From Lepraria neglecta (Eukaryota > Ascomycota > Lecanoromycetes > Lecanorales > Stereocaulaceae): a stretch of DNA of 64,000 bases. Positions 3,167 through 62,366 of this stretch are shown piece after piece. A program made the translations under genes and the position numbers. Location: the NCBI GenBank assembly GCA_033220425.1, contig CM065647.1, positions 3,658,001-3,722,000 on the forward strand. The letters are read 5' to 3'. Position 1 is the first letter of the stretch. Each line of letters opens with the position of its first letter. The notes beneath the pieces were generated by a model that had not been told where the DNA came from, ran no database searches, and saw nothing but the letters and a program-made list of their open reading frames with translations.

Positions 3167-4043
3167 ATTATGAAGACAGATTCGTGAGAAGAGTAAGGCT
3201 TCATAGTTTGAGATGGCAGAGCCGCTGCTTCAATTCCCAATCACGCCTTGGAAAGGATACGAGAGCGCAATTCTAGATCCAAAATCAGATTATGCGCCTG
3301 AACATGAGAGAGGTGGCGAGTATGATCCCTGTTCTACAAAGAATGAACAGAACAATCCTGCTGATATTCAGGGACCATTGGGCATCGGCCAACTCCAGGC
3401 CAAGCATTGCTGTTCCCTCGAGCGATAGTCAGTAATACAAAGAAGAAGATCCAGTAGAACGTCTAAGAAAGCGTAGAATAAGGTTATTGTTGACGTGAGG
3501 TATTGGATGATCGTGACCAATATCCTATCTGAGATAATGCTGAACCCTTGGAGTTAGCCTATGCCAAGAGGCCATAGCCTCGGTGACTTTAATTTAGAGG
3601 ACTGACAAAGACCCCAAATCCAAGACTATACCTGATGAGGCCTTTCTCCGCGTGTTCGAAAGAGAAGTTGGCCATGGCACGAGACCACAGTCGCACCGGG
3701 ACTGTGAAGTGGCGATTAAGTGGAGACTTTTTGGACGACTGTGCCTGTGAAAGATAAGAGTCTTCATGCGATCCAACGATAGTCGCACAAACCCCTGATA
3801 TGCGCTTAGACAGTCATAAAGCCATAAGCAAAGAGACTGTAACAGGATGTTGGTCAGTAAATGGCAAGAATTGGAGCATCGAGGTGTGGCAAGAGTTCGA
3901 AGGGATCGAGAACAAACACATATAAAGGAGACTCATTTCCCATTCCTCCCTTATCGACACCGCATCAGACAGATATTCAACAGACAAAGGATCATCATTC
4001 CACATCTTAGCAAGCATCAAATACTTTCCAAGCACTATTTATC
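3167..4043. other. Intergenic region; promoter of the small secreted precursor at its right end
   Basis: No supported gene is present. The 71-codon open stretch at 3213-3428 (+) has no recognisable features and was not called. The right part carries a TATA box ahead of the precursor gene. Confidence 0.45.
3921..3927 (+). promoter_or_regulatory. TATA box of the small secreted precursor gene
   Basis: A TATAAAG element lies about 120 bases upstream of the ATG at 4044, followed by a pyrimidine/CAT-rich leader. Position and sequence fit a class II promoter; this is inference from sequence only. Confidence 0.5.
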
Positions 4044-4310
4044 ATGAAGCTCCTCCACATGATTTCCTTCCTGGCTCTTGCCAACGGACTCGCGTCTGCC
4101 CTCGCAGTCCGCGTCCCAGAACCCAACATCGAAGCCGTTGCCAAAAGCTAAGAGGACATAGTCGAACGAAGCACAGAGGCTTCCTCGCCCCATAAAACCG
4201 CACTATTCAAGCTTGAGGCCGAGGCTTCCCGACCCCACAAGACGGCACCATTCAAGCGTTCGCCACTTCACAAGACTGCTCCATTCAAGCGTTCAGCTAA
4301 TGTGGAGTAG
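4044..4310 (+). pseudogene. Small secreted precursor with Kex2-type HKTAPFKR repeats, interrupted
   Basis: The frame opened by the ATG at 4044 starts with a clear signal peptide (MKLLHMISFLALANGLASALA). It leads, in the same frame, to three spaced repeat units: PHKTALFK (from 4188), PHKTAPFKR (4233-4259) and SPLHKTAPFKR (4260-4292). The end is at 4310. The last two units finish with Lys-Arg, the cleavage dipeptide of the Golgi protease Kex2. Signal peptide, acidic spacer and KR-bounded repeats match fungal Kex2-processed repeat proteins, the class that includes pheromone and dikaritin-type RiPP precursors. The core HKTAPF is not one I recognise. Reading is interrupted once between signal and repeats, so it is either a decayed gene or has an undetected intron. 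A TATA box lies upstream. No UstYa-like or tyrosinase gene is seen nearby. Confidence 0.6.
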
Positions 4311-18007: not shown

Positions 18008-20950
18008 CTCCCCTCGAGTCCATTTATGACGTAGCCTTGGTGTTTCTACATGCCCATATTCTCAACGGACTTCTGAAAGCTCGCCGCCGGCAGGGGCTTG
18101 GTGAGACCGTCCGAAAGCATATCCTCAGTGCTAATATATTCGATCCTGACCTTCCCATCCACCGCGACCTCTCTGACGTAATGCCACGCCACATCTATAT
18201 GCTTCGTTCGGCGGTGAAACTCAGGGTTCGTAGAGAGAGCAATAGCGCCCTGGTTATCTGCATAGAGAAGAACGGGATCTTTCTCTTTCCTTAGTCCAAG
18301 CTCGCTGAGCAAGCGGTAGATCCAGATAGCTTCTTTTACAGCCTCCGTTATTACTATATATTCAGACTCAGTGGAAGACGTGGCAACTGCAGTCTGGCGC
18401 TTAGAAGACCATGAGATGGGACCCCCATTCAGTATGTAGATATAGCCTCCGGTGGATTTTCTTCCGTCGATGACCCCTGCATGGTCCGCATCAGAATATC
18501 TAACTAAGCCCTCATTCCCAGCTCTTGAGTATGTGATGCCTCGTCTAAGCGTGCCTTTAATGTACCGAAAAATGCGGTCCAGGGCTTACATTTGTAGAGG
18601 ACCTGGATTGGAATAGTAACGACTGAGGACAGAGACGGCGTAGGCAAGATCAGGTCTTGTTTCTACCATAGCGTATATAAGGTATCCAACAGCCGATTGG
18701 TAGCGCTTGATGGTGGCTTTGGACGCTTGTATGAGAGGAGGTATCATGAATCCTGGGACTCCGGCATCTATGGGAGTGGCGGTAGGGTGATAATTATCTA
18801 TCTTAAAACGCTGCAACACCGTTATCAAATATGAACGCTGATGTAGTGTAATTCCAGTAGGATGACGTTCGATCTCAATGCCCAAATAGTGAGTAGCTGG
18901 ACCTATATCAGTCATTCTGAATTTGGCACTAAGTTGCTGTTTAAGCTTATTGACTTTTGTGATCTCTGTACCGACTATAAGCAGATCATCGACGTAAAGG
19001 GCGATGTAGATGGTCTTGTCTATAGACACAAATACGCAGTGGTCCGGAGTTGTTCTCATAAAGCCCAGTTGGGAGAGGAAGCCCTGAATAGTTGCGTACC
19101 AGACACAAGGAGATTGCTTCAGCCTATAGAGAGCTTTTCGTAGCTTGCAGACCTTATTCGTCCCGTCTTCGAACTCCGTAGGCTGAATGACGTAGACAAG
19201 CTCATCGAGAAGACCGTATAGGAAGGCGGTGACGACATCCATTTACTCCATATAAAGATCTCCTTTAGCGGCAGTTGAGATTATTGATCTATAAGAGACT
19301 GCCTTGACAACAGAGGCAAAAGTCTCCTTATAGTTAATACCCTGTTCTTATCGATAGCTATAGACTACCTACCGAGCCTTCCGCTTAATAGAGCTATCTT
19401 CCTTCTTCTTGATACGGAAGACCTATTTCCTAGTAAGAGGCTTATAGGATAGGGTACCTGTAGGAGGATGGACGAGGTCCCATGTAGAGTTCTCCATCAG
19501 AGAATCACATTCTGACTGCATAGCTTCTTTCAAAAGTTCCAAAGAGACTATCAGCCTCCTTTATAGCCTGCCGAATAGCCTGCCGAAGAGTCTGCGGTTC
19601 CTGAGGCTGAGGGTCAAGAGTCTCCCCTTTAGATAAGGCGCTGAGAGCTTTCACTATATGGATATGAGACTTTGGCGTTGGTCCTTCCAAAATGTCGTCA
19701 TCGCCAAATGGACGAACGACCGTGTCCAGGAAATTAGCATGATGCTCCCTGAATTTAGTGCCTTTAGATCTAGTGGTGTCTCTGGGCTTGAAGCCATCAG
19801 GGATCCGGTTCTTTGGATTGCGAGGTTTCTTTTCAGGTAGATCACTATCTTCCTCGCTAGCTTTATCAGAAGAAGGCTCCCCTGAAGGTGGTAGAGAAAT
19901 GTCACTTGATTCCGCAGAAGAAAGGTCTGTAGTAGGGACTGTAAGTGATGGTGAATCCTCGCGTTCTAAACCTGCAAGGAGCAAATCATCTTGCTCAGTC
20001 TATGGTAATAGCGTGATTTCAGACTCCCCCGGTTGGTAGACAGTATCCTCATCAATTTTGACATCTCGATGGGCGGTAACCTTCCTAGTCTTAGGGTTGT
20101 AGACACGATAATTTGTTCCCTCGTATCCAACAAAGATACCTTGCCAGGAGCGCTTATCAAGTTTGCCTCTTGATGTAGTCTTAGGAATAAGCACCCAAGC
20201 CCTACTCCCAAGGACCTTGAAATAGGAGACATCAGGCATTTCGCCATTGAGAGCAAAGTAGGGAACAGCATTGTTATCGAGGACTCTCGTAGGACATCTA
20301 TTCCGCACATGGCAGACAGCAGAGACGATCTCGTACCATAGGTGTTTTCCCAGGTGCTTCTCAGCCATAATCGACTGAGTGGGTCCCATGAGAGTATAGT
20401 TCTTCCGCTCAACCTTGCCATTCTGGGCGTGTGTATAAGCGGCGGAGTGTTCCCATTGGATACCCTTCTTAGCACAGTAAGCCGAGAAACGGTGATTATA
20501 GAATTCAGTCCCAAGGTCCGTTCTCCACACCTTAACCTTCCGTCCTGACTGAGTCTCCATTCTTGTGACCCAGTCCACCGTCTTCTCGAAAGTCTCGTCC
20601 TTAGAGACTAATGGCTCAGTCCATGTAGCCCCTGTGGAGTCATCGGTGACAGTCCACATGTACTTCTCTCCATGAATTCCTGGTGGAAAAGGTCCTTCAA
20701 GGTCAGAATGTAGCTTGTCCAGGAAATTGATAGCACGCCTCATTGGCTTGCGGGAAACTTGTTCCTGTTGCCTCCCCTTCATGCATTCACCACATATTTC
20801 TGTTGGGGGATGCCCATAAAGACATAGCCCTTGGACGAGATGTTGGACTTTCTGCAGACTACCATATGCGAGGTGAGCAAACCGCCGGTGCCAAAGCACG
20901 TATTCATTATTGCTTGCAGAGGTGACTTGAGCGTACGTTTGAGGAGGCGT
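17845..20950 (-). mobile_element. Ty1/Copia LTR retrotransposon, 5'-truncated fossil
   Basis: The minus-strand order is integrase, reverse transcriptase, RNase H, 3' LTR. The GAG-pre-integrase region (LWHRRFAHL, CGECMKGRQQ) and integrase core lie at about 20000-20950. A linker follows at about 19500-19990, the reverse transcriptase at about 18350-19490 (YVDDLLIVG present) and RNase H at about 18046-18312 (ADNQGAIAL, TKHIDV). A purine-rich tract (GAGGGGAG) abuts the 163 bp LTR. No 5' LTR, gag or protease is found before the host gene B sequence at the other end, so the 5' third is missing. The element is broken at several points and moderately decayed. It inserted into host paralogue B. Confidence 0.88.
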
Positions 20951-21736
20951 AGTGGCGACATTGAGCGACTCATCGGGTGAAAGATGTTGTGGTACATCGT
21001 CAGCATCATGCCAATGCTCGTGCCTGTCCACTTCTTCCTCATCTAAGAGACCTCGATCCCCAAGCTCCTTGATATAGTCCATAATCAACCGCTTATGCTG
21101 ATGAATGGTCGAGCTTGAGAAGCCTTCATGTCGCAATTCTCTGCGGAACTCCCTCCAGACCGCCTTATCATCATCCGCGTAGGTGGTGAATATCGAGCCC
21201 TCGTAGTTGTTTCCGGAGATGAAATGCGTCGTAATTGTATTCACGGCGAGCTGAATGTCCTTTAAGATCCCCCCACTCCTATTGATCTCTTGTTCTACTC
21301 TCCCAACAGCTCCCATCGACACCATATTCAGGTTAAATGATATCATGGTCGTGTAAAATACCATTTTTGACCGAAGATCGCCTAGATCTGCCATCTCGCC
21401 GTTCCCAAACCGAATCCTTTGCCATAATTTGCGAGCACCGCGTTCCTGGTCATTTAGAGCATTGTACTTGTCCAAGATCCTGTTGAGCACCCGGAGCACT
21501 TTTCTGCAATCCCCTGATATCCGCCGAAGTTCAGTCCCACTTATATCGCCTGGCCGATTGATGGGGCTCTCGGGGGTCGCAACCTCTTCATCCAGTCGTC
21601 TCAGGGCGGTGTGCAAGGCCGAAACCTCACGAGTGAGTTCGTCATGTTCTCCACATGCCTTCTTAGAGTTCTGGAAGGCTTGGTAGGCTAATTGGCCTAG
21701 AAGCATTCCATCGCTGAGTGAGGTTCCGAAATTCAT
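20951..21736 (-). pseudogene. Paralogue B, 5' part, running in frame into Copia integrase
   Basis: The ATG at 21736 starts MNFGTSLSDGMLLGQLAYQA, followed by CGEHDELTREVSALH, NALNDQERGARKLWQRIRFG and FTTYADDDKAVWREFRRELR. This is the STAND-like N-terminal helical domain shared with paralogue A. The open frame continues without a stop across the junction (about 20930-21000) into the Copia GAG-pre-integrase and integrase and ends at 20000. As it stands the DNA holds a 578-codon chimeric frame, host domain plus integrase. The exact junction cannot be set without an undisrupted relative. The host C-terminal part lies at 16439-17844. Whether the chimera is expressed is unknown. Confidence 0.7.
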
Positions 21737-22742
21737 AGCTAGAGACGCAGTTGAGCTGCCTGACAGGTCATGCTCTCATAGAGGTGGATTTGGAGCTGGA
21801 CATGGGATGAGCAAGTCAAATTGTAGCAGCGTAGGAAGGCAACACAATTGCAAAGCATAAAAAGCACACGGGCAAGCCGAGGGAGAATTCAGGCGTAATT
21901 GCTCCAGCCGTATACCGCAATGCTGAAGAACAGTGATCACGATGGTTGCCAAATTTCGCTTCTTGGCGGCAGCAAGGCCGCTCAAAAGCGCAAAGAGCAG
22001 ATATTGTCTTTCTCGCTGTCCTTGTGGCATAGAGTTGTCTGTGGGATAAGGAACGGTGCTTTAAGGAAGGAGGGCAGAAGGCCGCCCTTAGGGCTCAATG
22101 CTTTTAGCGTGGGCGGGGTGTTCTAGGCCATGCAGAGCGACGCAACTAGGACTTACCTGCATCATCGTCCAAATACAATCTACAGATATGACACAGTCTA
22201 ATGGCAGAACAGAGAGGACAACATGAGGCCTAAGCATGCCTCCGAGGGCGCCAATGATACTACAGCTGCCTACTGTCATGGGAGTCGATTTCCAAACCTG
22301 CTTAGTCATATCCCAACATGTAATATGCAGCTGTATTGGCTGTATTGGCAACACGTCCTAGGGCGAAGGAGCTTGAGAAGGCTGTCTGACCTGCCATGGA
22401 TGTTTGGGAGACAGAGTAAAATTTGGAGCAGCTGGTCAGCGCGGAGGCTGCGCATAGGCCATTTTGCAGGGCTTTGCTAACTGTGTATCAAGCAGGTCAT
22501 CACTCCATGCTACAAACTTTTTCAGACCCATCAACTCTGTTTCCAGGTGTAGGGAACGACTAGTCGTATCCATATATTGATCATGCGTGTCAACCGTCAG
22601 CCATAATTTTACAAACGTTGCTCTGGAGCATATCGTCTACCTCTCTCATTGATGGGCTGCATCAGGTACTGCTGGATGACAGTTACACACAGGGGCCCAG
22701 CATAACTGACTATAGTGCCTTTAGCACTTTCATTCTCCACAA
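21737..22742. other. 5' flank of paralogue B and unassigned DNA
   Basis: No supported gene. A minus-strand stretch around 22100-22480 shows short collinear coding-like pieces, but too little for a call. Confidence 0.4.
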
Positions 22743-45250: not shown

Positions 45251-47392
45251 AAAGATATCCCGGCCCGACCGCCACTCCGGCTCAACCGCCACTTTTTTCT
45301 ACCAATTCGAACATCTTCAAATATGGCCCAATCCACCCACAACGCTCGAATGGAGCTCGCAATGGCAGATCTAGCCAATCAGGACAAGCTGAATTACAAG
45401 GCGACAGCAGAAAAGTACTCAGTGGGCCGTACGACCCTGCGCCAGCGATATCTCGGCCAAACGCTCTCTATCCAAGCTGCAGCTTCTAAATATCGCTAAC
45501 GACTCACTTTCATACAAGAAGAGACCCTTATCAAGTATATCAATAGCTTGACCAATCGCGGATTACCTCCCACAAGCCGAATTGTATGTAATCTAGCAGA
45601 AGAGATAATTGGTGGCCCTGTAGGGAAGAACTGGACTGGAGATTTTGTCAAACGCTACGAAAATAGGCTTACAAGCATACATCTTCGCAATATCGATAGC
45701 CAGTATATAAAATCAGAGTACGCTCCATTATTCAAGCAGTTCTATGACTTAGTAACGTGGATTAAACGTTTGATAATATTGAATTAGATCAAATAGCTAA
45801 TATTTTGACTAGTTGATCGCTGCAGTCGAAAAATACAATATCACTACTGAAAACATCTACAATTGGGACGAGAAGGGCTTTGTAATTGGTCAAGCAACAG
45901 CTACCCAGCGTATAATGAACAGGGAAGCCCTCGAATCAGGCCGGATCACTCGTGCTTCTCAAGATGGTAGCCGGGAGTTCATTAGCTTGCTCGCATGCAT
46001 CAGCGCTATTAGAGCTGTTCTACCGCCCGCATTGATATATAAGGGTGACTCTTCTCTTTATAATACATGGCTAGAGGACTGGGTACCTAGAGATATTGCT
46101 TACTTCGCTGTCTTATCTAATAGGTAGAGTTCGAATACCTTCGGTCTGCATTAGCTAGAAACCATCTTCTAACACTATACTAGTAAGATAGTAAAGAGAA
46201 GTCGCCGTTTACTAATAGTTGACGGCCATTCGAGCTATATTAACTTGTAGTTTATTGAATCATGCGATCGATTACGAATTCTGCTATTGATTTTACCTCC
46301 TTATTCTACGCATCGATTGTAGCCGCTCGATATATCACTATTCGCACCTCTAGCACGGTTCTATATAAACAACCTCAATAGTTTGATGGCTAATAGCTTA
46401 GGTATGACCTCACTATCTAAACGGAGCTTCTAGGGCGTATTTTGGCCTGCTTGGCAACAGGCCTTCGTACCAATGAACATTATATCTGGATTTACTAAAA
46501 CAGGTATATGGCTATTTAACCCTGCATTAGTCCTTTCGAAAATCATATAGCTACCCTTACAGGAAGCTCCTCTTCCTTATTAAGGACTAAGAACACTAAT
46601 AACAAGCTATACTGCTCGCCGCATTTAATAGTAGTACCGTAAGGCCCCGAGCTCGCTATTAATAGCTAAAGTCTTCCGAGCCAATGAACGCCTCGTGTCA
46701 CAATATTCTATTAACTAATATATACTTAAAGGCTTAGTTAATACCTTAAAAGATAAGAAGAAGAAGAGGCGACGAGGTAAATGCTTAAACTTAGTAGGGG
46801 ATAAGGATATAGGGCCTTAATTCTTCTCCCTAGCCCGAGTAGAAGCTGCTTGGGCTTAGCAAGTAGTCAAAGATAGTGAAGAAGTACAGCGGCAGCAAGG
46901 GATATAAGATAGGAAGGCTATAGCAGCTATAAAGAAGGCTTAGAAGGAAGAAGAGAAGGTACAGAAGCAGTAAATCACTATCGAACGAAGAATACAGAAA
47001 GTAGCCAATTAGTAGGTCTAGAAAGCCCTTAAGGAATCACTTAAAGCAGCCAATAAGAAGCAAGTAGCTATTCGAAAGCAATTAACGAAGCTTCCGAAAG
47101 CCCAGAGTAAGCGCAATAAGTAGCTAATCAGGCCTCATGATATATTAGCAATAAATCGAGGAGAAGGAGTGATTTCGGCTACTTCGAGCGGAAGGAGGGT
47201 CCAACGCCCTAGGCGCTTTGCGTATTGAGTTTATGACATATATAGCTTGTTAATATAGTACTAATTAATTATCCTTATGAGTTTTAGAGCTTCAATTAAT
47301 ATTATAGTGGTATAATAAGCTAGATAAGTAATTTGTACGATGTTTAAAAAGTGGCGGTTGAGCCGGAGTGGCGGTCGGGCCGGGATATCTTT
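45251..47392 (+). mobile_element. Fot1/Pogo-type DNA transposon, 2.14 kb, RIP-mutated
   Basis: Perfect 47 bp terminal inverted repeats (45251-45297 and 47346-47392, beginning AAAGATATCCCGGCCCGACC) are flanked by TA duplications. The transposase reads from the ATG at 45323. There is a psq-type helix-turn-helix (NYKATAEKYSVGRTTLRQRY), a CENP-B-like second half (RGLPPTSRIVCNLAEEIIGG, WTGDFVKRYENRL) and a DDE domain with NWDEKGFVIG (near 45860), VDGHSSYINL (near 46220) and FTKTGIWLFNPAL (near 46500). The C-terminus is basic (GRRVQRPRRFAY, near 47220). Stops include one at 45497-45499, one frame change near 45760-45812 and many TA-type stops after 46120. The 3' half is much more mutated than the 5' half. 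It is not active. Confidence 0.92.
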
Positions 47393-48076
47393 TATGTATG
47401 CCGAAGAATAGCCGGCTAACTGTCGCGAACTCCTCCCGCGGACCACTGCCGATTATACAATTCTACGGAGAATGAGACCAAAAGTCTTGAATCCGTGCTA
47501 TACTAGTTAAGTCATTTCTGTCTACTCCGCACTTAGTACCTTTAGTTTAATATATTACGAATATAATATACAAGATATTTTTTGCAAGCTTTATAGTAAC
47601 TCCAATAACTCTAACTTCTTTAGCTAATAGTAACTATCTATTTAGATACTAATACTAGTATTTAAGCTCCTATTGTAACTACTATTAGGACTATAGCCTT
47701 GCTTCTAACCCTTATACCGCTACTAATACTCCGTAGGGATATATAGACGTATATTAGACTATTCGCCTTCCTCTCTTCCTTCTCTATATTTATTTCTATT
47801 GTATAATTCTATAACCTTAGTAATATAACGTAGGAGGCGTTCAATCTATAATTGGATACACTTCTAGCTAAGTTCTTTTTCCTGATAGCGTGTCTAGACT
47901 TTAGTTAGAATCGCCCTGGTCCGCGAGTAGCCTTTGTAAGTTATATATCTCTTTGTCTACTACTAATATAGTTCTATAGTATTTAAATCCGAGGAATTAC
48001 TATACTATATAAGACGGAGGACGTTAGCGTCTAGGAATATCTTATTTTAGTATTTAGACGTATATAAAGGAGCCTT
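47393..48076. other. TA-rich relic DNA between the DNA transposon and the LTR nest
   Basis: The first about 130 bases (47395-47520) look unmutated. The rest is strongly TA-rich and RIP-like, with no recognisable protein similarity. It is probably an unidentified old repeat. Confidence 0.45.
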
Positions 48077-48403
48077 TGTTACGAACCGTATATACTAGTA
48101 TTATATATAGACTATTCTTAATAGAGATAGAGGTATAAGATATATTTAGCGTCTAGTATAAGATCTATTATATATAGTATATAAATAAGTAGGAAGTAAG
48201 TTAAATATAATACTCTAAATAGTAATAGTACTCTATATATATAGAAAATATTATACTAAGCTCTTATTTAAACTATTCGATAACTAATTAACTTAAATAC
48301 TAAGACTATATTTAAACTATTTAATAACTAATTAATTTGAATACTAAGACTATACTAAGTATTATATCTATATATTACCTTAGTTATAGTCCGGGTTATA
48401 ATA
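48077..48403 (-). repeat. LTR of an older element, left copy
   Basis: It begins TGTTACGA and ends GGTTATAATA. It pairs with 61595-61943 (TATTACGA...GGTTGTAACA), with shared phrases such as CGTATATACTAGTATTAT and AGTATAAGATCTATTATATAT. The left copy carries an internal duplication of about 45 bp (TTAAACTATT..ATAACTAATTAA). Heavily mutated. Confidence 0.7.
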
Positions 48404-48446
48404 TTAGCTCCCTCTTCTAGAATTCTTATTCTAAGAATTACTATCT

Positions 48447-48860
48447 TGTTACGACCCACGTCCGGCCGTTAACCTAACGGTGCGATAACCGACGTAGGGG
48501 TGTCGTGTGTCTTATACTTCTGTAGGAGAGGAGTCACTCAGGTAGAATGGCAGTCTTCTTAGGTGGAGGTAATCAATACATTCTATATTAATAACTAGTA
48601 AAGTATAGTGCAAGGAATACCAGGAAGATTAACCAAGTTGAACACGCTGTTCCAAACAGTGGGCAGAGCCCCGTATATATAGACATAAGAAATTCTGCCA
48701 AGCATTCCATGAGCGTTATGAGCGCACGGCGCTCATCGCGCTCATCATTCTTGAGCGCTATGAGCGCACAGCGCTCGTCGCGCTCATCGCTACAGCTACT
48801 AGTCCTATCTGTAGTACCTTGTCCTACAGGACAGTCCTGTCAGAACCACCGGTTCTAACA
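48447..48860 (-). repeat. 3' LTR of the outer Gypsy element
   Basis: 414 bp, TGTTACGACC...GGTTCTAACA. It contains GAGCGC-rich palindromes (ATGAGCGCACGGCGCTCAT). Near-identical to 61128-61541. Confidence 0.92.
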
Positions 48861-48899
48861 CTAGCCCCCTCCCCTAGATTTCTCGTCCCGAGAAACCAT

Positions 48900-49435
48900 C
48901 TATCCTTCATGCCTCCTCGTCGAAATATCCGTTCTAAAGATCCCCTCGTCCGTCGCAAAGAGCTGTCCGGTAAATTATCCAGATTCGTGATACGTCCTTA
49001 TACTCTCTGTACGAAGGGTAATAAGTAATGCTTGGTAGGCGTTCGTTCGGACCGTTGTTCCAACTGTGTTACTGCGGGCAAGAAGTATGACCTAGTTATA
49101 TCCGTCGACGAGATGCGTCATATTAAGAAAGTACGCGACAATACTTAGTTAGAGATAAAAGAAACGCAGGCGAAACTTATACGCCTTCAATCGCAATTCG
49201 ATCGAGTCTAGGATAAAGAGAAAAAGTTAGTTAAGCGCGAGTTATAGAATATAGAAGAGTTAGAGAAGGATAAAGATCTTCCCTCCAATACTCCTGACGG
49301 TCTAATATTCAACGTCGGCTCCGAGCAGTTCAACCTCCTCCCCGGCCTAGAGGGCCCCGAGAGCTTCGACTAGTCTTCCCTTGTCTCTGATGAAACTCTT
49401 GTAGGCATTCCCCGCAATTCCCCGCAAGGTTCCTA
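48900..49435 (+). other. Opposite-strand coding-like stretch in the outer Gypsy element
   Basis: The plus strand beside the 3' LTR, antisense to the pol genes, has protein-like composition. It shows a Cys-containing segment (DRCSNCVTAGKKYDLV), a Lys/Glu-rich probable coiled coil and an acidic end (IFNVGSEQFNLLPGLEGPES). The same stretch is conserved at the protein level in the inner copy (53608-54140). It is broken in several places. It resembles small Cys-rich accessory proteins annotated beside fungal Gypsy elements; function unknown. Confidence 0.5.
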
Positions 49436-52400
49436 AGAGGTTCCCAGGTACTTTCCGTTTCGTCGTACCCCTTCTATTTAACTAGATAGAACTGATTCCT
49501 TCTATCTAGGATCCTCTCGACCTCGTACTCTATTTCTTCCTTAACATTATAATAAAACATTTCTTAGAGTAGTATATTAGAGTCCGCTGGCTCTAGAAGT
49601 GAAATATAGAATACCGGATATACTTTAGCGTTAGGTAGAAGCTCGAGTTTATAGTTAATAGCCCCCTTTACCTTCTTAATCAAGAATAGTCCGACCTTAA
49701 TATAATCTAGTTTCTTACTTGGTCTCGTTATCTTTATATTTTTTATTAGGAGGTATACTTTATCCCCCTCTTTAAGTTAAGGTATATTCTTTCTTTTACT
49801 ATTAACCTATCCCTTTAACTTATTATTTGAGCTTTTAATAGTCCTTTATATATCTTTATATAAATTCAGCTCTTCTACCTTAACTAAGGCTTCTTCTATA
49901 TTAAGTCCGTCCCTAGGTTATAGAAATATATTCGTATTCTTTCCGTGGTTGGTAAAGAATGGTATCAGGCCTATTATATCTAACCTCTTATTATTATACG
50001 CCAGTTATACTATTAGAAGTAGTAAAACCCAATTATCTTGTTTCTGGTTCATATAATGTCTTAAGTAAGCTTCTATTATTTGGTTTACACGTTCCGTTTA
50101 TCCATTAGTCTATAGATAGTATACCGTTAATATCCGAAGTTTAGTTCCAATTGCTGCAATCAGCGTTCTCTAATAGTTAGAAGTGAATAACTTATCTCTA
50201 TCGGATATTATTGACTTGGGTATACTATAATCCCTTATCAGCTTGTCGAGTAGTATAAAAGCTAATTGGTCTGCTTTGTATATCTCTTTAAATAGTATTA
50301 TAATCGTATACTTCGTTAGTTTATCTATAATAACTATAATTGAATTAAAGGTGTCTTATATAGCTGGATCCTTCGAAGGTAGTAGTTTAACTATAAAGTC
50401 CATTATAACATTATCCTATAGTAATTCCGGTATAGGCACAAACTAAATTTGCCCGTACTTAGCGTATCATACAGACTTGTTCTACTAGCATTGAATACAT
50501 TCCTTAATATATTGTTCAACGCGCGTCCGAAGCTTCGGCGCTGCGTATCCTCGTCCTAGGAGTTCTATAGTTTTAGATACTCTAGGGTAACCTTGTAAAG
50601 GGTCATCGTAGTAATCCCTGATTACTTCTTTAATATATACATCAGGTAAGTAGGTTTTTTCCTAATATCTGAGCAATACTAAATCTAGTTAATCCTATCG
50701 TAGCTTTGTTACAAATACATCGTTATTATAGGCCTTTACGATCTTATTAGTTATATCAGGTCCTGATATATAAAGGGTCATTGCCAATGCCTAATATAGC
50801 ACTAATGATCCATCGGCTTCTCGTTTTAGGATTAGTTATTCCGTAACGTTCTTTTCTTCTATATAGTCCGACCGCCTACTAAGCACATCTGCTTGACTAT
50901 TATCTTTCCCTAGGGTATAGGTTATCTTGAACTTATATTATCTAAGTAGTTCTAACTATCTAACTTGTCTTCTATTTAACTCTTTCGTTGTTATAAAGTT
51001 AAGAAGATTCTTATAATCCGTGAAGATGGTTAGGTCCGAGTAGCTTTCTACGTATACTCTCCAATTTTAAAGTATATATACTACGGCAAGTAGTTCTTTA
51101 TCGTATATATCGTAGTTTTATTCTACTACTAACATCTTTCGTAAAAAGTAGGCAACGGGATACTACTTTTAGTCCTTCATTTAACAAAGGCATACTCCTA
51201 TTACGAGATCCGAGGTATCTATTTCGATACGAGCCGGTTCGTTAGCTTAAAAGGTACAGAGTACTAGTAGATTCGCACATGCTTTTTTCAATATATTAAA
51301 CAACTTCTATTATTCTTGTCCCTATATAAATCTAATATCCTTTTTAGTAATATCTATAAGTAGAAGTACTTTCTTTAAGTAGCCCTCGATAAACTTCCTG
51401 TTAAAGTTAGCAAATCCTAAGAAACTTTGTACTACTTTAACGTCCTGTAGTATAGGCTATTCCGCTATAGCTTTAATCTTTTCTAGGCTTATACTAATAC
51501 CTTTTATACTAACTATAAATCCTAGGAACTTAATAGAGTCCCTGTAAAACTTGTACTTTTCCGGTTTAAAGAGAAGTCCCGCTTGCGACAGGTATTCGAT
51601 AACGTCCTATATATACTTAACGTATTCTTCCTTATTCTTAGAGTAAATCAAGATATTATCGAGGTACGCTATCGCTGTTCGATCTAAGTGTGCTTATACG
51701 ATATTATTAACAAGTGCTTAGCAGGTTACTAGTACGTTAGTAAGTCTAAACGGTATTACTAGATACTCGTAGTAGCTATATCTAGTCCGAAAGGTAGTTT
51801 TCTATTCTTCGCCTTCTTTTATCTAGATTAGATTATATATACCTCTAAGATCTAGTTTCGTAAATATCTTTGCCTTACTAAGCCGATCCTATAGCTCGCT
51901 AATATTTGGCAAAGGGTAACGATTCTTAATAGTAATATTGTTTAACTTTCGATAGTCGACGTATAGTCTTAAGCTTCTATCCTTCTTCAGCGCGAAGAGG
52001 ATTAGATAACCTACTAGTAATTTGGATTCCCGAATAAATCCCTTCTTAAGGTTCTTATCGATATACCCGCGAAGTATAGTAAGTTCCTTTTCTAATAATA
52101 TATAGATAGGTCCAAATATTAGCGCCTTGCTAGGTTCGAGTTCGATCTTATAATCCTATAGTTAGTACTTAGGTAACGCTTTTACGCTCGTCTCTTCCTC
52201 GAATAGGTATACCTACTATTTATATTCTCGAGGGATCGTAGAAGGTTCGTCCTTTCCTTTAATAGCTCTCTCTTTAGTATCCTACTAACCTTTACTAGTA
52301 ACTAAGGAGTTAAGCCTTCTCTCTTAGAAGTCGCTCTTATTATTTAAGAATAAAGTAATATATACTTCGACCGGTCTTCGGTTCTTTCTCTTATCTATTA

Positions 52401-53152
52401 TTGTCTACTATTAACTAATAGGTCTAATACTAGTAATATTTCCAGATTATCCGAATTTAAGTACTTTTATCTTCTAGTTAATTTCTAGGTTATATTTATT
52501 TAACTAAGGTATTCCTAAAATAATATTATAAGTAGCTATCCTAACTATATCGAATATAATTTCCTTGTAGTATTACTGAATTATTACTAGTAGGGAGCGA
52601 GTTTCCTCCTCTACTTTTCCTATTAAAAATACTAACCTGTTAGCCAGGCGTAGCTCGTAAGACAATTTCTTCTTTCTAGTTAGTAGGCCGCTCGAGTCTA
52701 CTAAGTTCCTCGAAATAAAATTTCCTGTAGCTCCGCTGTCTATCATCGCTATAGTCCGCTATCTATCAATATTCACTGGTATAATAATATAAGTGTGGTA
52801 CTAGGCAGAATACAATTGTTATTTGGGGAATAACGCGTTAATCTCCTTATACTTCCCCGTAGTATAAGAGATTACTCTTTTCCCTGTAATAGTAGGAAGC
52901 CGTATACTTCCTTTATCCCCTTATACGGAATATATTTATTATATAAGCAGCTATACTATAGTACTTAGTTATAAGCTCCTCTCTTAAAGACTTTAAGTAA
53001 GCTGTTTCTTTCTTTTTCCTACTTCTCTATAAAGTATAGGAAGTAGTAATACTTCCTCTTGCTTACAAGATGCCACTAGTACCTGTCTTCCTTATACTTA
53101 TACTACTATATCTCCCTATAGTAAGATTTCTTAAGTAGAGGTACCGTGCGTT

Positions 53153-53568
53153 TGTTACGACCCTCACGTCCGATCGTTAACCTAACGGTGCGATAACCGA
53201 ACGTATAGGGGTATATACGTCTTATGCTTCTATGGGAGAGGAGTCACTTAGGTAGAATGGCAGTCTTCGTAGTAGTAGGTAGTCAATACATTCTATATTA
53301 ATAACTAGTAAAGTATAGTGCAAGGAGTACCAGGAAGATTAACCAAGTTAAACACGCTATTCCAAGTAGTGGGCAAAGCCCCGTATATGTAGATATAAGA
53401 AATCCTGCCAAGCACTCTATGAGCGTTATGAGCGCTGGCGCTCATTACGCTTATCATTCTTGAGCGCTATAAGCGCTGGCGCTCGTCGCGCTCATCGCTT
53501 CAGCTACTAGTCCTATCTATAGTACTTTGTCCTATAGGATAGTCCTGTTAGAACCACTGGTTCTAATA
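53153..53568 (-). repeat. 3' LTR of the inner Gypsy element
   Basis: 416 bp, begins TGTTACGACCCTCACG. It pairs with 59284-59699 with few, mostly transition, differences. Confidence 0.92.
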
Positions 53569-53607
53569 CTAGCCCCCTCCTCCAGATTTCTCGTCCCGAG
53601 AAACCAT

Positions 53608-54140
53608 CTATCCTTCATACCTCCTCGTCGAACCATCTGTTCTAAAGATCCCCTCATCCGTTGCAAAGAACTCTCTAGCGAACTATCCAGGTTTATAATA
53701 TATCCTTATACTTTCTATACGAAGGGTAATAAGTAATACTTGGTAGGCGTCCGTTCAGATCATTATTCTAACTGTATAGCTGTAGGCAAGAAGTGCGACC
53801 TTGTCGTGTCTGTTAATAAGATACGTCGCATCAAGAAAGTTCGTAACGATACTTGGTCTAAAATAAAGGAAACGCAGGCGAAACTTATACGCCTTCAATC
53901 GCAATTCGATTATATCTAGGATGAAGAGAAAAAGTTAATTGAGCGCGAGTTATAGAATATCGAGGAGTTAGAGAAGGATAACCTTCCTTCTGACACTCCT
54001 GACGGCTTAATATTCAACGTCGGCTCTGAGCAGTTCGACCTCCCCCCCGGCCTAGAGGGCCCCGAGAGTTTCGACTGGTCTTCTCTTATCTCCGATGAAA
54101 CTCTTATAGGCGTTCCCCGCAATTCCCCGCAAGGTTCCTA
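53608..54140 (+). other. Opposite-strand coding-like stretch in the inner Gypsy element
   Basis: The counterpart of 48900-49435, with the same Cys-rich, Lys/Glu-rich and acidic segments (LIFNVGSEQFDLPPGLEGPE). Protein-level agreement between the two copies, despite different mutations, supports it as a real part of the element. Broken. Confidence 0.5.
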
Positions 54141-57100
54141 AGAGGTTCCTAGGTACTTTCCGTTTCGTTATACCCTTTCTATTTAACTAGATAGAACTGA
54201 TTTCTTCTGTCTAGGATCCTCTCGACCTTATATTCTATTTCTTCCTTAACATTATAATAAAACGTCTCTTAGAGTAGTATATTAGAGTCCGCTGGCTCTA
54301 GAAGTAAGATATAGAATACTAGATATACTTTGGCGTCAGGTAGAAGCTCGAGTTTATAGTTAACGGCCCCCTTTACCTTCTTGATTAAGAATAGTCCGAC
54401 TTTAATATAATCCAGTTTCTTGCTTGGTCTCGTTATCTTCATATTTTTTATTAGGAGGTATACTTTATCCCCCTCTTTAAGCTAAGGAATATTCTTTCTT
54501 TTATTATTGACCTGCTCCTTTAACCTCTTATTTAAGCTTTTAATTATCTTTTATATATCTCCGTATAAGCTCTTTAGCTCTTCTACCTTAACTAAGGCTT
54601 TTTCTGCGTTAGGTCCTTCCCTAGCTTACAGAAATATATTCGTATTCTTTCTGTAGTTGGCAAAGAATGGTATTAGACCTATCGTGTCTAACCTCTTGTT
54701 ATTATACGCTAGTTATACTATCGGAAGTAGTAAAACCTAGTTATCTTGCTTTAGGTTTATATAGTATCTTAGGTATACTTCTATTATTTAGTTTGCACGT
54801 TCCGTTTATCTATTAGTCTATAGATAGTACGCCGTTAATATCCGAAGTTTAGTTCCAATTACTACTATCAGCGTTCTCTAGTAGTTAGAAGTGAATAACT
54901 TATCTCTATCGGATATTATCGACTTGGGTATACTATAATCTCTTATTAGCTTGTCGAGTAGTATAAAGGCTAATTGGTCTACTTTGTATATTTCCTTGAA
55001 CGGTATTATAATTGTATACTTTGTGAGCTTGTCTATAATGACTATAATTAAGTCGAAGGTATCCTATATAGCTGGGTCCTTTGAAGGTGGTAGTTTAACT
55101 ATAAAGTCTATTATAATATCATCCTATAGTAATTCTAGTACAGGCGCAAACTGAATTTACCCGTACTTGGCGTGTCGTATAGACTTGTTCTGCTGATATT
55201 GAATACACTCTTTAATATATTGTTCAACGCGTATCCGAAGTTTCGGCGCCGCGTATCCTCGTCCTAGGAGTTCTATAGTCTTGGATACTCCAGGGTAACC
55301 TTGTAAAGGGTCATCGTGGTAATCCCTAATTACTTCTTCAACGTATATATCAGGTAAGTAAGTCTTTTCCTGATATCTAAGCAATACTAAACCCGGTTAA
55401 TCCTGTCGTAGCTTTGTTGCGAACGCATTATTATTATAGGCCTTTACGATCCTGTCAGTTATATCAGGTTCTAATATACAAAGGGTCATTACTAATACCT
55501 GATGTAGCACCAATGATCCATCGGCTTCTCGTTTTAGGATTAGTCGTTCTGTAACGTTCTTTTCTTCTATATAGTCCGATCGCCTACTAAGCGTATCTAC
55601 TTAACCATTATCTTTTCCTAGGGTATAGGTTATCTTGAACTTATATTATCTAAGTAGTTCTAACTATCTAACTTATCTTCTATTTAACTCTTTCGTTATT
55701 ATAAAGTTAAGAAGATTCTTATAATCCGTAAAGATAGTTAGGTCCGAGTAGCTCTCTACGTATACTCTCCAATTCTAAAGTATATATACTACAGCAAGTA
55801 GTTCTTTATCGTGTATATTATAGTTTTGTTCTACTACTAACATCTTTCGTGAAAAATAGGCAACTAGATACCATTTTTAGTCCTTCATCTAACAAAGGCA
55901 TACCCCTATTACGAGATCCGAGGCATCTATTTCGATACAAGCCGGTTCGTTAGCTTAAAAGGTATAGAGTACTGGAGGATCTGCGTATACTTTTTTCAAT
56001 ATGTCAAACGATTTTTATTATTCTTATCCCCATTTGAATCCGATATCTTTCTTAGTAATATCTATAAGTAGAAGTACTTTCTTTAAGTAGCCCTCGATAA
56101 ACTTCCTATTAAAGTTAGCAAATCCTAAGAAACTTTGCACTGCTTTAACGTCTTGTAGTATAGGCTATTCCGCTATAGCTTTGATCTTTTCTAGGCTTAT
56201 ACTAATACCTTTTATACTGACTATAAATCCTAGGAACTTAATAGAGTCCCTATAAAATTCGCACTTTTCTGGTTTAAGGAGAAGTCCCGCTTATGATAGG
56301 CATTCGATAATATCCTGTATATACTTGACGTATTCTTCCTTTTTCTTAGAATAGATCAAGATATCGTCAAGGTACGCTATCGCTATTCGATCTAAGTATA
56401 CTCGTATAACGTTATTAATAAGTGCTTAGCAGGTTGCTGGTGCGTTAGTAAGTCCAAACGGTATCACTAGATACTCGTAGTAGCTATATCTAGTCCGAAA
56501 GGTAGTTTTCCATTCTTCGCCTTCTTTTATTCGGATTAGATTATATATACCTCTAAGGTCTAACTTTATAAATATCTTTGCCTTACCGAGCCGATCCTAT
56601 AGCTCGCTGATATTTAGTAAAGGGTAACGATTCTTGATAGTAATATCGTTTAACTTTCGATAGTCGATATATAGTCTTAAGCTTCCGTCCTTCTTCAGTG
56701 CGAAGAGGATTAGATAACCTACTAGTAATTTAGATTCCCGAATAAATCCCTTCTTAAGGTTCTTATCGATATACCCGCGAAGTATAGTAAGTTCCCTTTC
56801 CGATAATATATAGATAGGTCTAAATATTAGCGCCTTACTAGGTTCGAGTTCGATCTTATAATCCTATAGTTAGTACTTAGGTAACACTTTTACGCTTATC
56901 TCTTCCTCAAATAGGTATACCTACTATTTATATTCCCGAGGGATTATAGAAGGTTCGTCTTTTCCTTTAATAGCTCTCTCTTTAGTATCCTACTAACCTT
57001 TACTAGTAACTAAGGAGTCGAGCCTTCTCTCTTAGAAGTCGCTCTTATTATTTAAGAATAAAGTAATATATACTTCGACCGGTCTTCGGTTCCTTCTCTT

Positions 57101-59283
57101 ATCTATTATCGTCTACTATTAACTAATAGGCCTAATACTAGTAATATTTCCAGATCATCCGAATTTAAGTACTTTTATCTTCCAGTTAATTTCTAGGTTA
57201 TATTTATTTAACTAAGGCATTCCCAAAATAACATTATAAGTAGCTATCCTAACTATATCAAATGTAATCTCCTCGTAGTATTACTAAATTATTACTAGTA
57301 GGGAGTATATCTCCTCCTCTACTTTTCCTATTGAGAATACTAACCTGTTAGCCAGGCGTAGCTCGTAAGACAATTTCTTCCTTCGGGTTAGTAGACCGCT
57401 TAAGTCCACCAAGTTCCTCGAGATAAAATTTCCTGTAGCCCCGCTGTCTATCATCGCCATGGTCCGCTATCTATTAATATTTACTAGTACAATAATATAA
57501 GTATGATACTGGGCGGAACACAATTATTACTTAGGGAATAACGTATTAATCTCCTTATACTTCCCTATAGTATAAGAGATTATTCTTTTCCCTATAATAG
57601 TAGGAAGCCGTATACTTCCTTTATACCCTTATACGGAATGTAATTATCGTATAAGTAGCTATACTATAGTACCTGGTTACAAGCTCCGTTCTTAAAGATC
57701 TTAAGCGAGTTATTTCTTTCCTTTTCCCACTTTTCGGTAAAGTATAGGAAGTAGTAATACTTCCTCTTACTTACAAGATACTATTAACATCTGTCTTCCT
57801 TACACTTGTGCCACCATATTTCTCTATAGTGAGCTTTCTTAAGTAAGGGTACCGTACGCTCTTTCGCTAGACGGCCCCGTTCTTCTCTATATACTAAATA
57901 GTCGGGTAATACACACTTAGTACATAGAACCTCGCCATATTACTAATATTCCCTATCGCTTCGATAGTCTCGTATAGGTTCTTCCCATTCGGGTTTTGCA
58001 GATAATTACTTCCTTAGTATACCTCGTACTTTTCCTTCAATTTCGTCGAAGAGTTTATTTTTATCTTCGTCCGATTAAGGTTCCCTAATCTCTGGCAATT
58101 TTCCTTCTACTTGGGATGTGGTAGATCCAGGTTCGGGTATCGATACTGGTCTCTCTAGACTAGCTTTCCGCTGTTCCTGATCCGTCTCATATTATTAAGA
58201 TTTATCACCATCCCTATAGTAGTATCTCTATACTTCTTTATTGAATTCTAATTCGAAGATATCGTCTTCCGAATCCTGATCTAATTCTTCTATATCGTAG
58301 AGTTACTATGTATCTTCAGAGTTTTCCTCGTTATCTAGAGGTCCTCCTTCTATTACGTTAATCTGCGGTCGGTGTACCATATTCTTCGACCTGTAGTCTC
58401 TAGCTATATAGCCCAGTTTGCTATAGCTATAGTAAGTAATTACTTTCTTTCCCCCGTGCTGCTTTTTCCCTTTAAAGTTTCCTTTCTTCTTTCCTATCTA
58501 GATAAAGTTAATCTCTATTAGTACTATACCACGGTAAGTATTACATTCTCTGTAATCTTATCGGTAATTCCTTGTTTTTGAGAAGAATCCCTTGTGTCGG
58601 GTTCCGCTAACTCCTCCGTCATGCCGCTTCTCTATAGATTATTCGAATAGTTTATTATCGATCTCGATCGTATTTTCTATAAGTCCGTCTAGAGTATTAA
58701 TTACTCCTCCGAATCTTATAAGCTCGTCTTTAATATTATCTTTAAGGCCCCGATAATATATCGTTATCAGCGTATCATCATCCTAGCCTATTTTGGTCGC
58801 GTACGTTTGAAATTAAGTTAAAAACTCTGACGCCGACTTCTTCTACTTTATATACTAAATGATGCGTATTACTACGTTTACCTTGTTAGAAGGTCCGAAT
58901 ATATAGCGGATTTCGACTATAAACTTTAGTATACTCTCTATCCAAGATTTAATATCGCTGTCCTCGTCGTCGTCTTCTATATACTTCTTTAGGAAAGGTT
59001 CGACCTACTTTTAGGCCCGTCCTCGTAGGTACGATATAGCGAAGGTAGTATATCTAGTTACTAGGAGCAAGTCTCCCTGGAATAGAAGGTACAGTTATAC
59101 TTGTGTAAGCTATGGCTCAAGCTTATCCCTGTCTCCGAAGTACAGGTCTGGTACTGTAACCTTGATCCTTTTTCCAGATCCTTCGTCTATAGTATAGTAT
59201 CTCTAGCCAGTAACCGTTAAGGTGCTTGGGGTAGGGTTTCTGCCTGAAGTTGTTGAAGAACTCATCCCTTAGGGTATTCAAAG

Positions 59284-59699
59284 TATTACGACCCTTACGT
59301 CCGATCGTTAACCTAACGGTGCGATAACCGAACGTATAGGGGTATATACGTCTTATGCTTCTGTGGGAGAGGAGTCACTCAGGTAGAATGGCAGTCTTCG
59401 TAGTAGTAGGTAGTCAATACATTCTATATTAATAACTAGTAAAGTATAGTACAAGGAGTACTAGGAAGATTAACCAAGTTGAACACGCTGTTCCAAGTAG
59501 TAGGCAAAGCCCCGTATATATAGACATAAGAAATCCTGCCAAGTACTCCATGAGCGTTATGAGCGCTGGCGCTCATTGCGCTTATCATTCTTAAGCGCCA
59601 TGAGCGCTGGCGCTCGTCGCGCTCATCGCTTCAGCTGCTAGTCCTGTCTGTAGTACTTTGTCCTACAGGATAGTCCTATTAGAACTACTGGTTCTAATA
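59284..59699 (-). repeat. 5' LTR of the inner Gypsy element
   Basis: 416 bp. It starts TATTACGACC, where the usual TG is altered, and carries the same palindromic GAGCGCTGGCGCTC motif as its partner at 53153-53568. Confidence 0.92.
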
Positions 59700-61127
59700 G
59701 CGTTCTTCCGCCAGACGGCCTCTTTCCTCCCTATATATCGAATAGTCGGGCAATATATATTTAGTATATAGAATCTCGCTATACTACTAATATTCCCTAT
59801 CGCATCGATAGTCTCGCGTAGGTTCGTCCCATTTGGGTTTTATAGATAATTATTTATTCAATATACCTCGTACTTTGCTTTCGATTTCGTCGAAGAGTTT
59901 ATATTCGTCTTCGTCCGATTGAGGTTCTTTAATTTCTAGTAATTTTCCTTCTGCTTGGGATATAGTGGATCCAGGTTCGGGTATCGACGCTAGTCTCTTT
60001 AGACTAGCTTTCCGCTGTTCCTGATCCGTCTTATATTATTAAGATCTATTACTATCCCTATAGTAATATCTCTATACTTCTTTATTGAATTCTAATTCGA
60101 AGATATCGTCTTCCGAATCCTGACTAGATTCTTCTTTATCGTGTAATTACTATGTTTCCTTAGAGTTTTCCTCGTTATCTAGAGGTCCTCCTTCTATTGC
60201 GTTAATCTGCGGTCGGTATACCATATTCTTCGACCTGTAGTCTCTAGCCATATAGCCCAGTTTGCTATAGCTATAGTAAGTAATTACTTTCTTTCCCCCG
60301 TGCTGCTTTTTCCCTTTAAAGTTTCCTTTCTTCTTTCCTATCTAAATAAAGTCAATCTCTATTAGTACTGTACTATAGTAGGTGTTATATTCCCTATAGT
60401 CTTGTCGGTAATTCCTTATCTTTGAAAAGAATCCCTCGTATCGGGTTCCGCTGACTCCTCTGTTATACTGTTTCTCTATAGATTATTCGAATAGCTTGTC
60501 GTCGATTTCGATCGCATTTTCTATAAGTCCGTCTAGAGTATTAATTACCCCTCCGAATCTTATGAGCTCGTCTTTGACATTGTCTTTAAGGCCTCGACGA
60601 TATATCGTTATCAGCGTATTATCATCCTAGCCTGTTTTAGTAGCGTATATTTGAAATTAAGTTGAAAACTCTAACGCTGACTTCTTCTGCTTCATATACT
60701 AAATGATACGTATTACTACGTTTGCCTCGTTGGAAGGTCCGAACATACGGCGGATTTCGACTATAAACTTTGGTATACTCTCTATCTAAGATTTAATATC
60801 GCTGTCCTCGTCGTTATCTTCTATATACTTCTTTAGGAAAGGTTCGACCCACTTCTAGGCCTGTCCTCGTAGGTATAATATGGCGAAGGTAGTATATCTA
60901 GTTACTAGGAGCAAGTCTCCCTGAAATAAGAGGTATAGTTATACTTGTGTAAGCTATGGCTCAAGCTTGTCCCTATCTCTATAGTACAGGTCTGGTACTG
61001 TAACCTTGATCCTTTTTCCAGATCCTTCGTCTATAGTATAGCGTCTCTGGCCAGTAACCGTTAAGGTGCTTAGGGTAGGGTTTCTGCCTGAAGTTATTGA
61101 AGAACTTATCCCTTAGGGTATTCAAAG

Positions 61128-61541
61128 TGTTACGACCTACGTCCGGCTGTTAACCTAACGGTGCGATAACCGACGTAGGGGTATCGTGTGTCTTATGCTT
61201 CTGTAGGAGAGGAGTCACTCAGGTAGAATGGCAGTCTTCTTAGGTGGAGGTAATCAATGCGTTCTATATTAATAACTAGTAAAGTATAGTACAAGGAATA
61301 CCAGGAAGATTAACCAAGTTGAACACGCTGTTCCAAACAGTGGGCAGAGCCCCGTATATATAGACATAAGAAATTCTGCCAAGCATTCCATGAGCGTTAT
61401 GAGCGCACGGCGCTCATTGCGCTCATCATTCTTGAGCGCCATGAGCGCACAGCGCTCGTCGCGCTCATCGCTACAGCTGCTAGTCCTATCTGTAGTACCT
61501 TGTCCTACAGGACAGTCCTGTCAGAACCACCGGTTCTAACA
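61128..61541 (-). repeat. 5' LTR of the outer Gypsy element
   Basis: 414 bp, TGTTACGACC...GGTTCTAACA, followed by the target duplication TATCT. Pairs with 48447-48860. Confidence 0.92.
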
Positions 61542-61594
61542 TATCTATTCTCTATACTACTAATATATTCTAGTAATTCTAAAGTAAACGTCTA

Positions 61595-61943
61595 TATTAC
61601 GAATCGTATATACTAGTATTATTTATATATATATATTATTCTTAATAGGAATAGAGATACTATATATATAAGAGAGTAAAGTAGATTTTAAGTATTACTA
61701 GACTAGTCTAGTATATAATAAGATATATTTAGTATCTAGTATAAGATCTATTATATATAATAAATAAGTAGAAAGTTAAGTATAATACTCTAAATAGTAA
61801 GTAGTACTCTATATATATAGATATAGGAAATCTTATACCAAGCCTTTATTCGAACCATTCGATAACTAGTCGATTCGAACGCCAAGACCATGCCGAGCAT
61901 TGCGCCAGCGCGCGTTACTATGATTATGGTCCGGGTTGTAACA
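61595..61943 (-). repeat. LTR of the older element, right copy
   Basis: Pairs with 48077-48403. It starts TATTACGA and ends GGGTTGTAACA. Its last 110 bases are much less mutated than the left copy. No matching target duplication is found outside the pair (GCCTT versus GTAAC). Confidence 0.7.
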
Positions 61944-62366
61944 GTAACTATTATAATTATAGCTGCTCGTCGGTAGTCGATAGCGCTTAGCTACGACTAT
62001 AATCCCTTATACGCGGTGCGGGCGTAGTTCTACTTCTACTGCAGGGCAATTAGTAATAGGCCTTTAAAGGGTAAGTTTAAGATAGGTATTTCGAACGTAT
62101 TATTCGAGAATTTAACAGGTTAAGATGTTACTAGTATAGTCAATGCCTCAACAGAACTACTGCCAATTTGGAAAGTCATTTGGAAACTAGAGGTAGTAAC
62201 GTAGGGAATATTTCCACCTGTAAAACATTGTTCAAATTAATGTTCTTTACTTTACCTGGGCTCAACACAATTCATTGCAAAGAAACCTTTGAAGACTTCC
62301 AAAGGTGATATCATAATCATTATCTAGTTCCATAATCCATTTCTAAGCTACATTCTGAAAATCAAT
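61944..62366. other. 3' flank of the PKS gene
   Basis: The first about 180 bases are TA-rich like the island. The remainder up to the PKS stop codon looks unmutated and probably holds the PKS 3' untranslated region. No gene is seen. Confidence 0.5.

What the first reader, a model, noticed from the sequence alone, without database searches (positions are those of the whole stretch)
4044..4310. Kex2-type repeat peptide precursor with unfamiliar HKTAPF core
A 21-residue signal peptide in frame with three HKTA(P/L)FK units, two ending in Lys-Arg, is the layout of fungal Kex2-processed repeat proteins. These are the precursors of pheromones and of dikaritin-type RiPPs. The core is not one I can match and lacks the Tyr common in dikaritin cores. 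One interruption separates signal and repeats, so this may be a relic, but the repeats are well conserved and the promoter has a TATA box.
Basis: partly seen in the sequence, partly recalled or inferred. Interest (0 to 1): 0.8.

Follow-up and report, generated by a model that had tools for sequence, protein, structure and literature searches.

The report
Broken fungal SPPHKT-like repeat-peptide gene
This looks like a stop-interrupted fungal gene for a small secreted protein that would be cut into short repeated peptides; its supposedly unfamiliar core closely resembles a peptide type (SPPHKT) already listed in a published fungal survey, so it is a minor find.

Summary
ATG 4044 opens a signal-peptide-like frame that ends at TAA 4149-4151; the same frame then stays open to TAG 4308-4310 and holds HKTALFK, HKTAPFK and HKTAPFK, the last two followed by Arg (Lys-Arg sites). 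The repeats differ mostly at third codon positions, and no comparable triple repeat arose in 60 shuffles, so they were very probably once translated. [quoted passage not shown] No UstYa/DUF3328 hit was found in 1-45 kb and the core has no Tyr or Cys, so neither a dikaritin nor a mating pheromone is supported. Both Lys-Arg sites are followed by Ser-Pro or Ser-Ala, a Ste13-type signature. I read it as the relic of a gene for a linear, Kex2/Kex1/Ste13-trimmed secreted peptide of SPPHKT-like type. As it stands it fails the formal KEP definitions (stop; only two dibasic sites). The species is unknown, no fungal genome could be searched, and expression is untested.

The parts
3921..3926 (+). TATAAA box-like hexamer about 120 bases before the ATG
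   Evidence: function inferred
4044..4106 (+). 21-residue signal-peptide-like start (likely cut after Ala-Leu-Ala)
   Evidence: hydropathy only
4107..4148 (+). short pro-region up to the stop
4149..4151 (+). in-frame stop TAA that separates signal peptide and repeats
4152..4310 (+). continuation of the same frame, 52 residues and TAG; no in-frame ATG between the stop and the end of the frame
4191..4211 (+). unit 1, HKTALFK, preceded by SSP; not followed by a dibasic site
4236..4256 (+). unit 2, HKTAPFK, preceded by SRP, followed by Arg (Lys-Arg site, then Ser-Pro)
4269..4289 (+). unit 3, HKTAPFK, preceded by SPL directly behind Lys-Arg, followed by Arg (Lys-Arg site, then Ser-Ala)

Best explanation
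The locus is a degraded, probably non-functional copy of a gene for a small secreted precursor akin to the published SPPHKT type of Kex2-processed repeat proteins. In its working form (inferred) the precursor would enter the ER by its signal peptide, be cut by Kex2 after Lys-Arg, lose Lys-Arg to Kex1 and the leading Ser-Pro dipeptide to a Ste13-like aminopeptidase, and be secreted as short linear peptides around (P/L)HKTAPF. In this sequence the in-frame stop cuts the repeats off from the signal peptide, and unit 1 lacks a dibasic site. Shown: anatomy, codon-level constraint, near match to the published core, no detectable UstYa gene in 1-45 kb. Inferred: processing, linear product, former function as a signalling or host- or microbe-directed peptide, loss of function.
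For: Same-frame signal peptide and repeats. Mostly synonymous differences between units. Repeats beyond chance. Each unit matches SPPHKT at 5 of 6 (SSPHKT, SRPHKT, SPLHKT); 0 of 200,000 residue shuffles gave three such matches and 329 gave at least one; 0 of 127,966 six-frame 6-mers elsewhere in the window reach 5 of 6. SPPHKT is named as a conserved Pezizomycotina KEP core. Both Lys-Arg sites are followed by Ser-Pro or Ser-Ala, the XP/XA Ste13 signature of that paper. No UstYa/DUF3328 in six frames of 1-45 kb. None of the four GT donors available to remove the stop looks good (consensus recalled).
Against: Only text of the paper was seen, not its Figure 8 or tables, so the match is to a six-residue core, exact in no unit, and to no full precursor; whether the published core stands directly behind Lys-Arg was not seen. 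I met the core while reading, among several listed cores, so the shuffle figures are post hoc. Only two dibasic sites are present, fewer than either KEP survey demands. The stop could be a sequencing error or a rare splice, in which case it is no relic. Third-position clustering alone is weak (P = 0.025), and the looser KEP-like test was met by 1 of 60 shuffles.
Confidence: 0.7

Rival explanations
1. The gene is intact and works: the stop is a sequencing or assembly error, or lies in an unusual intron.
For: Apart from the stop the frame is open from 4044 to 4307; the locus has no RIP signature; 6 of 41 candidate GT-AG introns of 30-150 bases over the stop would keep all three repeats in frame.
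Against: The four possible donors (GTCTGC, GTCCGC, GTCCCA, GTTGCC) do not resemble the usual fungal GTRNGT donor (consensus recalled); unit 1 lacks a dibasic site. No reads or second strain could be seen.
Confidence: 0.22
2. It is a dikaritin-type (UstYa-modified, cyclic) RiPP precursor or its relic.
For: Signal peptide plus Kex2 repeats is the dikaritin layout; three of the seven abundant DUF3328-linked KEP types are marked by di-His or Trp rather than Tyr.
Against: No UstYa/DUF3328 or tyrosinase hit at E 0.01 in six frames of 1-45 kb; where present, DUF3328 genes lie 3.09 genes from the KEP gene on average; no Tyr. Only 4 kb upstream is visible, so an upstream cluster gene is not excluded.
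Confidence: 0.05
3. It is an alpha-type mating pheromone precursor or its relic.
For: Ste13-like spacers (Glu-Ala-Glu-Ala before unit 2, Ser-Pro and Ser-Ala behind Lys-Arg) are typical of alpha-pheromone precursors.
Against: The core lacks the paired Cys and the PYGxPxG of the two Dothideomycete alpha-pheromone groups; no MF_alpha Pfam hit.
Confidence: 0.05
4. A chance tandem repeat in non-coding DNA beside an unrelated short frame.
For: The two parts are separated by a stop; no homologue could be shown by alignment; the looser KEP-like test was met by 1 of 60 shuffles.
Against: Codon pattern of the differences, 0 of 60 shuffles in the stricter test, and the near match to a published core.
Confidence: 0.03

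Closest known systems
SPPHKT-core KEX2-processed repeat proteins of Pezizomycotina (Le Marquer et al. 2019, PMC6339444; one of motifs 3 to 6 of Fig. 8; text seen, figure and tables not)
   Same: Core matches at 5 of 6 in each of three units; signal-peptide-like start and Lys-Arg sites
   Different: Interrupted by a stop; only two dibasic sites; exact core in no unit; full published precursors not compared
Ascomycete alpha-pheromone precursors
   Same: Signal peptide, tandem cores, Lys-Arg followed by XA/XP dipeptides
   Different: No Cys pair, no PYGxPxG; core unrelated
Dikaritin precursors (ustiloxin, phomopsin, asperipin-2a; victorin recalled)
   Same: Signal peptide and Kex2-spaced short cores
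   Different: No Tyr, no UstYa/DUF3328 neighbour detected in 1-45 kb

Membership tests
Kex2-processed repeat protein (KEP), formal survey criteria | Signal peptide on the same open precursor as the repeats | tested here: not met
   Signal-peptide-like start present but TAA 4149-4151 separates it from the repeats
Kex2-processed repeat protein (KEP), formal survey criteria | At least three repeats of at least 8 aa between KR, KK, RK or RR sites (Umemura 2020), or at least four fragments after cutting at KR/RR, or else at KK (Le Marquer 2019) | tested here: not met
   Three units but only two KR sites in 4152-4307 and no dibasic site in the 35-residue first piece
SPPHKT-type KEP | Core SPPHKT | tested here: inconclusive
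   5 of 6 in each of three units, 6 of 6 in none; short core
SPPHKT-type KEP | Similarity over the whole precursor | not testable with these tools
   No fungal proteome and no supplementary tables available
Dikaritin RiPP | UstYa/DUF3328 oxidase gene nearby | tested here: not met
   None in six frames of 1-45 kb at E 0.01. The region left of the window is unseen, 45-60 kb was not scanned with Pfam, and weak hits split by introns could be missed
Alpha-type mating pheromone | Paired-Cys or PYGxPxG core | tested here: not met
   Translation against the description
Alpha-type mating pheromone | Ste13-type XA/XP dipeptides behind Kex2 sites | tested here: met
   KR-SP and KR-SA, 2 of 2 sites

The most novel reading that the evidence does not exclude
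SPPHKT-type genes make a non-sexual, Ste13-trimmed linear peptide hormone of filamentous ascomycetes, and this locus marks a lineage that has recently lost it, or that still makes it through an unusual splice.
Probability: 0.12. Interest if true: 0.5.

Novelty: new member of a known kind. Interest (0 to 1): 0.2.

Why it matters
It ties an apparently orphan repeat to a published peptide type for which the passages I read give no function, adds Ste13-like spacers and the lack of a UstYa neighbour in view as hints that the product is linear, and suggests that such a gene is decaying here. By their stated criteria the two KEP surveys would miss it, because it is interrupted and has too few dibasic sites.

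Tried and rejected
Literature strings (library of 5.39 million CC0/CC BY/CC BY-SA PMC papers only): HKTAPF, HKTAPFKR, KTAPFKR, HKTALF in 0 papers. Of SPPHKT, PPHKT, PHKTAPF, PHKTAP, LHKTAP, PHKTALF: 12 papers, of which PMC6339444 alone holds SPPHKT; the other 11 hold only PPHKT and are plant papers, most on HKT transporters or salt stress. HKTA together with KEX2: 0 papers. HKT strings in the main text of the Trichoderma and lichen RiPP papers: none. In the Venturia effector paper (PMC9632046, passages only) nine dikaritin clusters are reported; I did not search it for HKT. The Aureobasidium paper (PMC8329847, passages only) has no PHKT in its main text. Two broader KEP searches served to find the surveys; beyond the papers named here I saw only their listings.

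A back-translated core was sought in prokaryote genomes and in viral contigs: 3 contigs, all bacterial, one match each, taken as chance and not followed; 0 viral contigs. Neither collection is meant to hold fungi, so this says nothing about relatives. No NCBIfam (E up to 1; models for prokaryotes) or Pfam (E up to 0.1) family for either piece.

RIP as a cause was considered: the signature is strong at 46-62 kb and absent at the locus, so no cause for the stop is claimed. An intron ending at AG 4161 behind a branch-point-like CTAAG was considered, but with each of the three donors listed for it (4094, 4107, 4113) the repeats fall out of frame.

Full report
Observation. The described feature is present at the stated place. 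ATG 4044 starts a frame that reads as a 21-residue signal-peptide-like start followed by a short pro-region, and stops at TAA 4149-4151. The same frame is then open to TAG 4308-4310 and holds three units, HKTALFK (4191), HKTAPFK (4236) and HKTAPFK (4269). Units 2 and 3 are followed by Arg, so they end in Lys-Arg; unit 1 is followed by Leu and has no dibasic site. There is no in-frame ATG between the stop and the repeats, so the repeats cannot be translated alone from an ATG. A TATAAA lies at 3921.

More than chance. In 64 kb and six frames, only this stretch met a KEP-like test. On 60 dinucleotide shuffles that test was met in 1, and a test for three near-identical 7-residue repeats within about 60 residues in none, against 1 hit in the window. 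Among the three 21-base units 5 columns vary, 4 of them third codon positions (P = 0.025, weak), and a simulation with as many random changes from unit 2 gives at most one amino-acid change with P = 0.0015. These units were therefore very probably under selection as protein in this frame. The signal-peptide judgement rests on hydropathy (3 of 580 open ATG starts are as good, this one included), not on SignalP.

What it is. The exact core was in no paper of the library. But a survey of 250 fungal secretomes, PMC6339444 (abstract and outline, the results section, sections 17 and 24 and passages read; figures and supplements not seen), names SPPHKT among new conserved cores of Kex2-processed repeat proteins in Pezizomycotina, and says that only conserved peptides found in at least four species were considered. 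The three units here read SSPHKT, SRPHKT and SPLHKT, each 5 of 6 identical to SPPHKT, none 6 of 6. In unit 3 the Ser-Pro stands directly behind Lys-Arg; whether the published core does so I could not see. In 200,000 shuffles of the 52 residues, 329 gave at least one such match and none gave three; none of 127,966 six-frame 6-mers elsewhere in the window reached 5 of 6. The comparison is post hoc, since I met the core while reading, but even with several listed cores chance is unlikely.

How it would work. Both Lys-Arg sites are followed by Ser-Pro or Ser-Ala, and unit 2 is preceded by Glu-Ala-Glu-Ala. The survey describes XA or XP behind the Kex2 site as the Ste13 signature. The likely scheme of the working ancestor is: signal peptide, Kex2 cut, Kex1 trimming of Lys-Arg, Ste13-like removal of Ser-Pro, secretion of a linear (P/L)HKTAPF-like peptide. 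This is inferred; nothing here shows processing or expression.

Neighbours. Pfam scans of six frames with X at every stop covered 1-45 kb (E up to 0.01) and 60-64 kb (E up to 0.1); 45-60 kb was not scanned. Found: an orotidine 5'-phosphate decarboxylase (about 0.6-1.3 kb), a protein kinase on the minus strand (about 2.4-3.0 kb), an IPP-2 domain (about 12.1-12.5 kb), a BAG domain (about 14.6-14.8 kb), a Copia-like element (about 18-22 kb), a Zn2Cys6 factor and an MFS transporter (about 25-30 kb), a second Zn2Cys6 domain, an O-methyltransferase, an iron alcohol dehydrogenase and a P450 (about 36-45 kb), and a retrotransposon gag domain and polyketide-synthase-like ACP and thioesterase domains at the right end. 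That the window is fungal is inferred from the fungal-type transcription-factor domains and the RIP-type block. No UstYa/DUF3328 and no tyrosinase was listed. A motif search for HxxHC-like sites gave four scattered hits and no convincing pair. In the fungal-wide survey PMC7329392 (abstract and outline, sections 6, 7, 8 and 11 read), 22% of KEP genes have a DUF3328 gene among the 15 nearest genes, at 3.09 genes on average. Only 4 kb upstream is visible here, so an upstream cluster gene is not excluded.

The interruption. Of 41 GT-AG pairs of 30-150 bases that would remove the stop, 6 keep all three repeats in frame, but their donors are poor (consensus recalled). The locus carries no RIP signature, unlike 46-62 kb. 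The stop may be a recent loss, an assembly error or a rare splice; reads and RNA-seq would tell. I favour a relic because unit 1 also lacks a dibasic site; this is a judgement, not a test.

Membership. By the formal survey definitions this is not a KEP: the frame is interrupted and there are only two dibasic sites. It resembles one and probably derives from one. It is not supported as a dikaritin (no UstYa in view, no Tyr) nor as an alpha pheromone (no Cys pair, no PYGxPxG).

Verdict. A real, very probably once translated sequence whose core is close to a published type; probably a decaying copy; modest interest. What remains open is the function of SPPHKT peptides as a whole.

Noticed in passing
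46001-62000: AT-rich block (GC 34-40%) with a strong RIP signature (TA/AT 1.36-1.58, composite index 0.80-1.13 in each of eight 2-kb steps), flanked by steps with negative index.
   Followed up: partly
18046-21775, minus strand: Copia-like retroelement: reverse transcriptase, integrase core, GAG-pre-integrase and SH3-like domains (integrase and GAG-pre-integrase below Pfam's cut-off) in different frames, in DNA without RIP signature.
   Followed up: no
24613-45000 and 62367-63974: Zn2Cys6 factors, MFS transporter, O-methyltransferase, iron alcohol dehydrogenase and P450, and beyond the RIP block two ACP stretches and a thioesterase as in polyketide synthases: possibly one secondary-metabolite cluster split by a RIP-affected insert.
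   Followed up: no
60585-60887, minus strand: Retrotransposon gag domain (E 1.7e-05) at the right edge of the RIP-affected block, a hint that the block is a retroelement insert.
   Followed up: no
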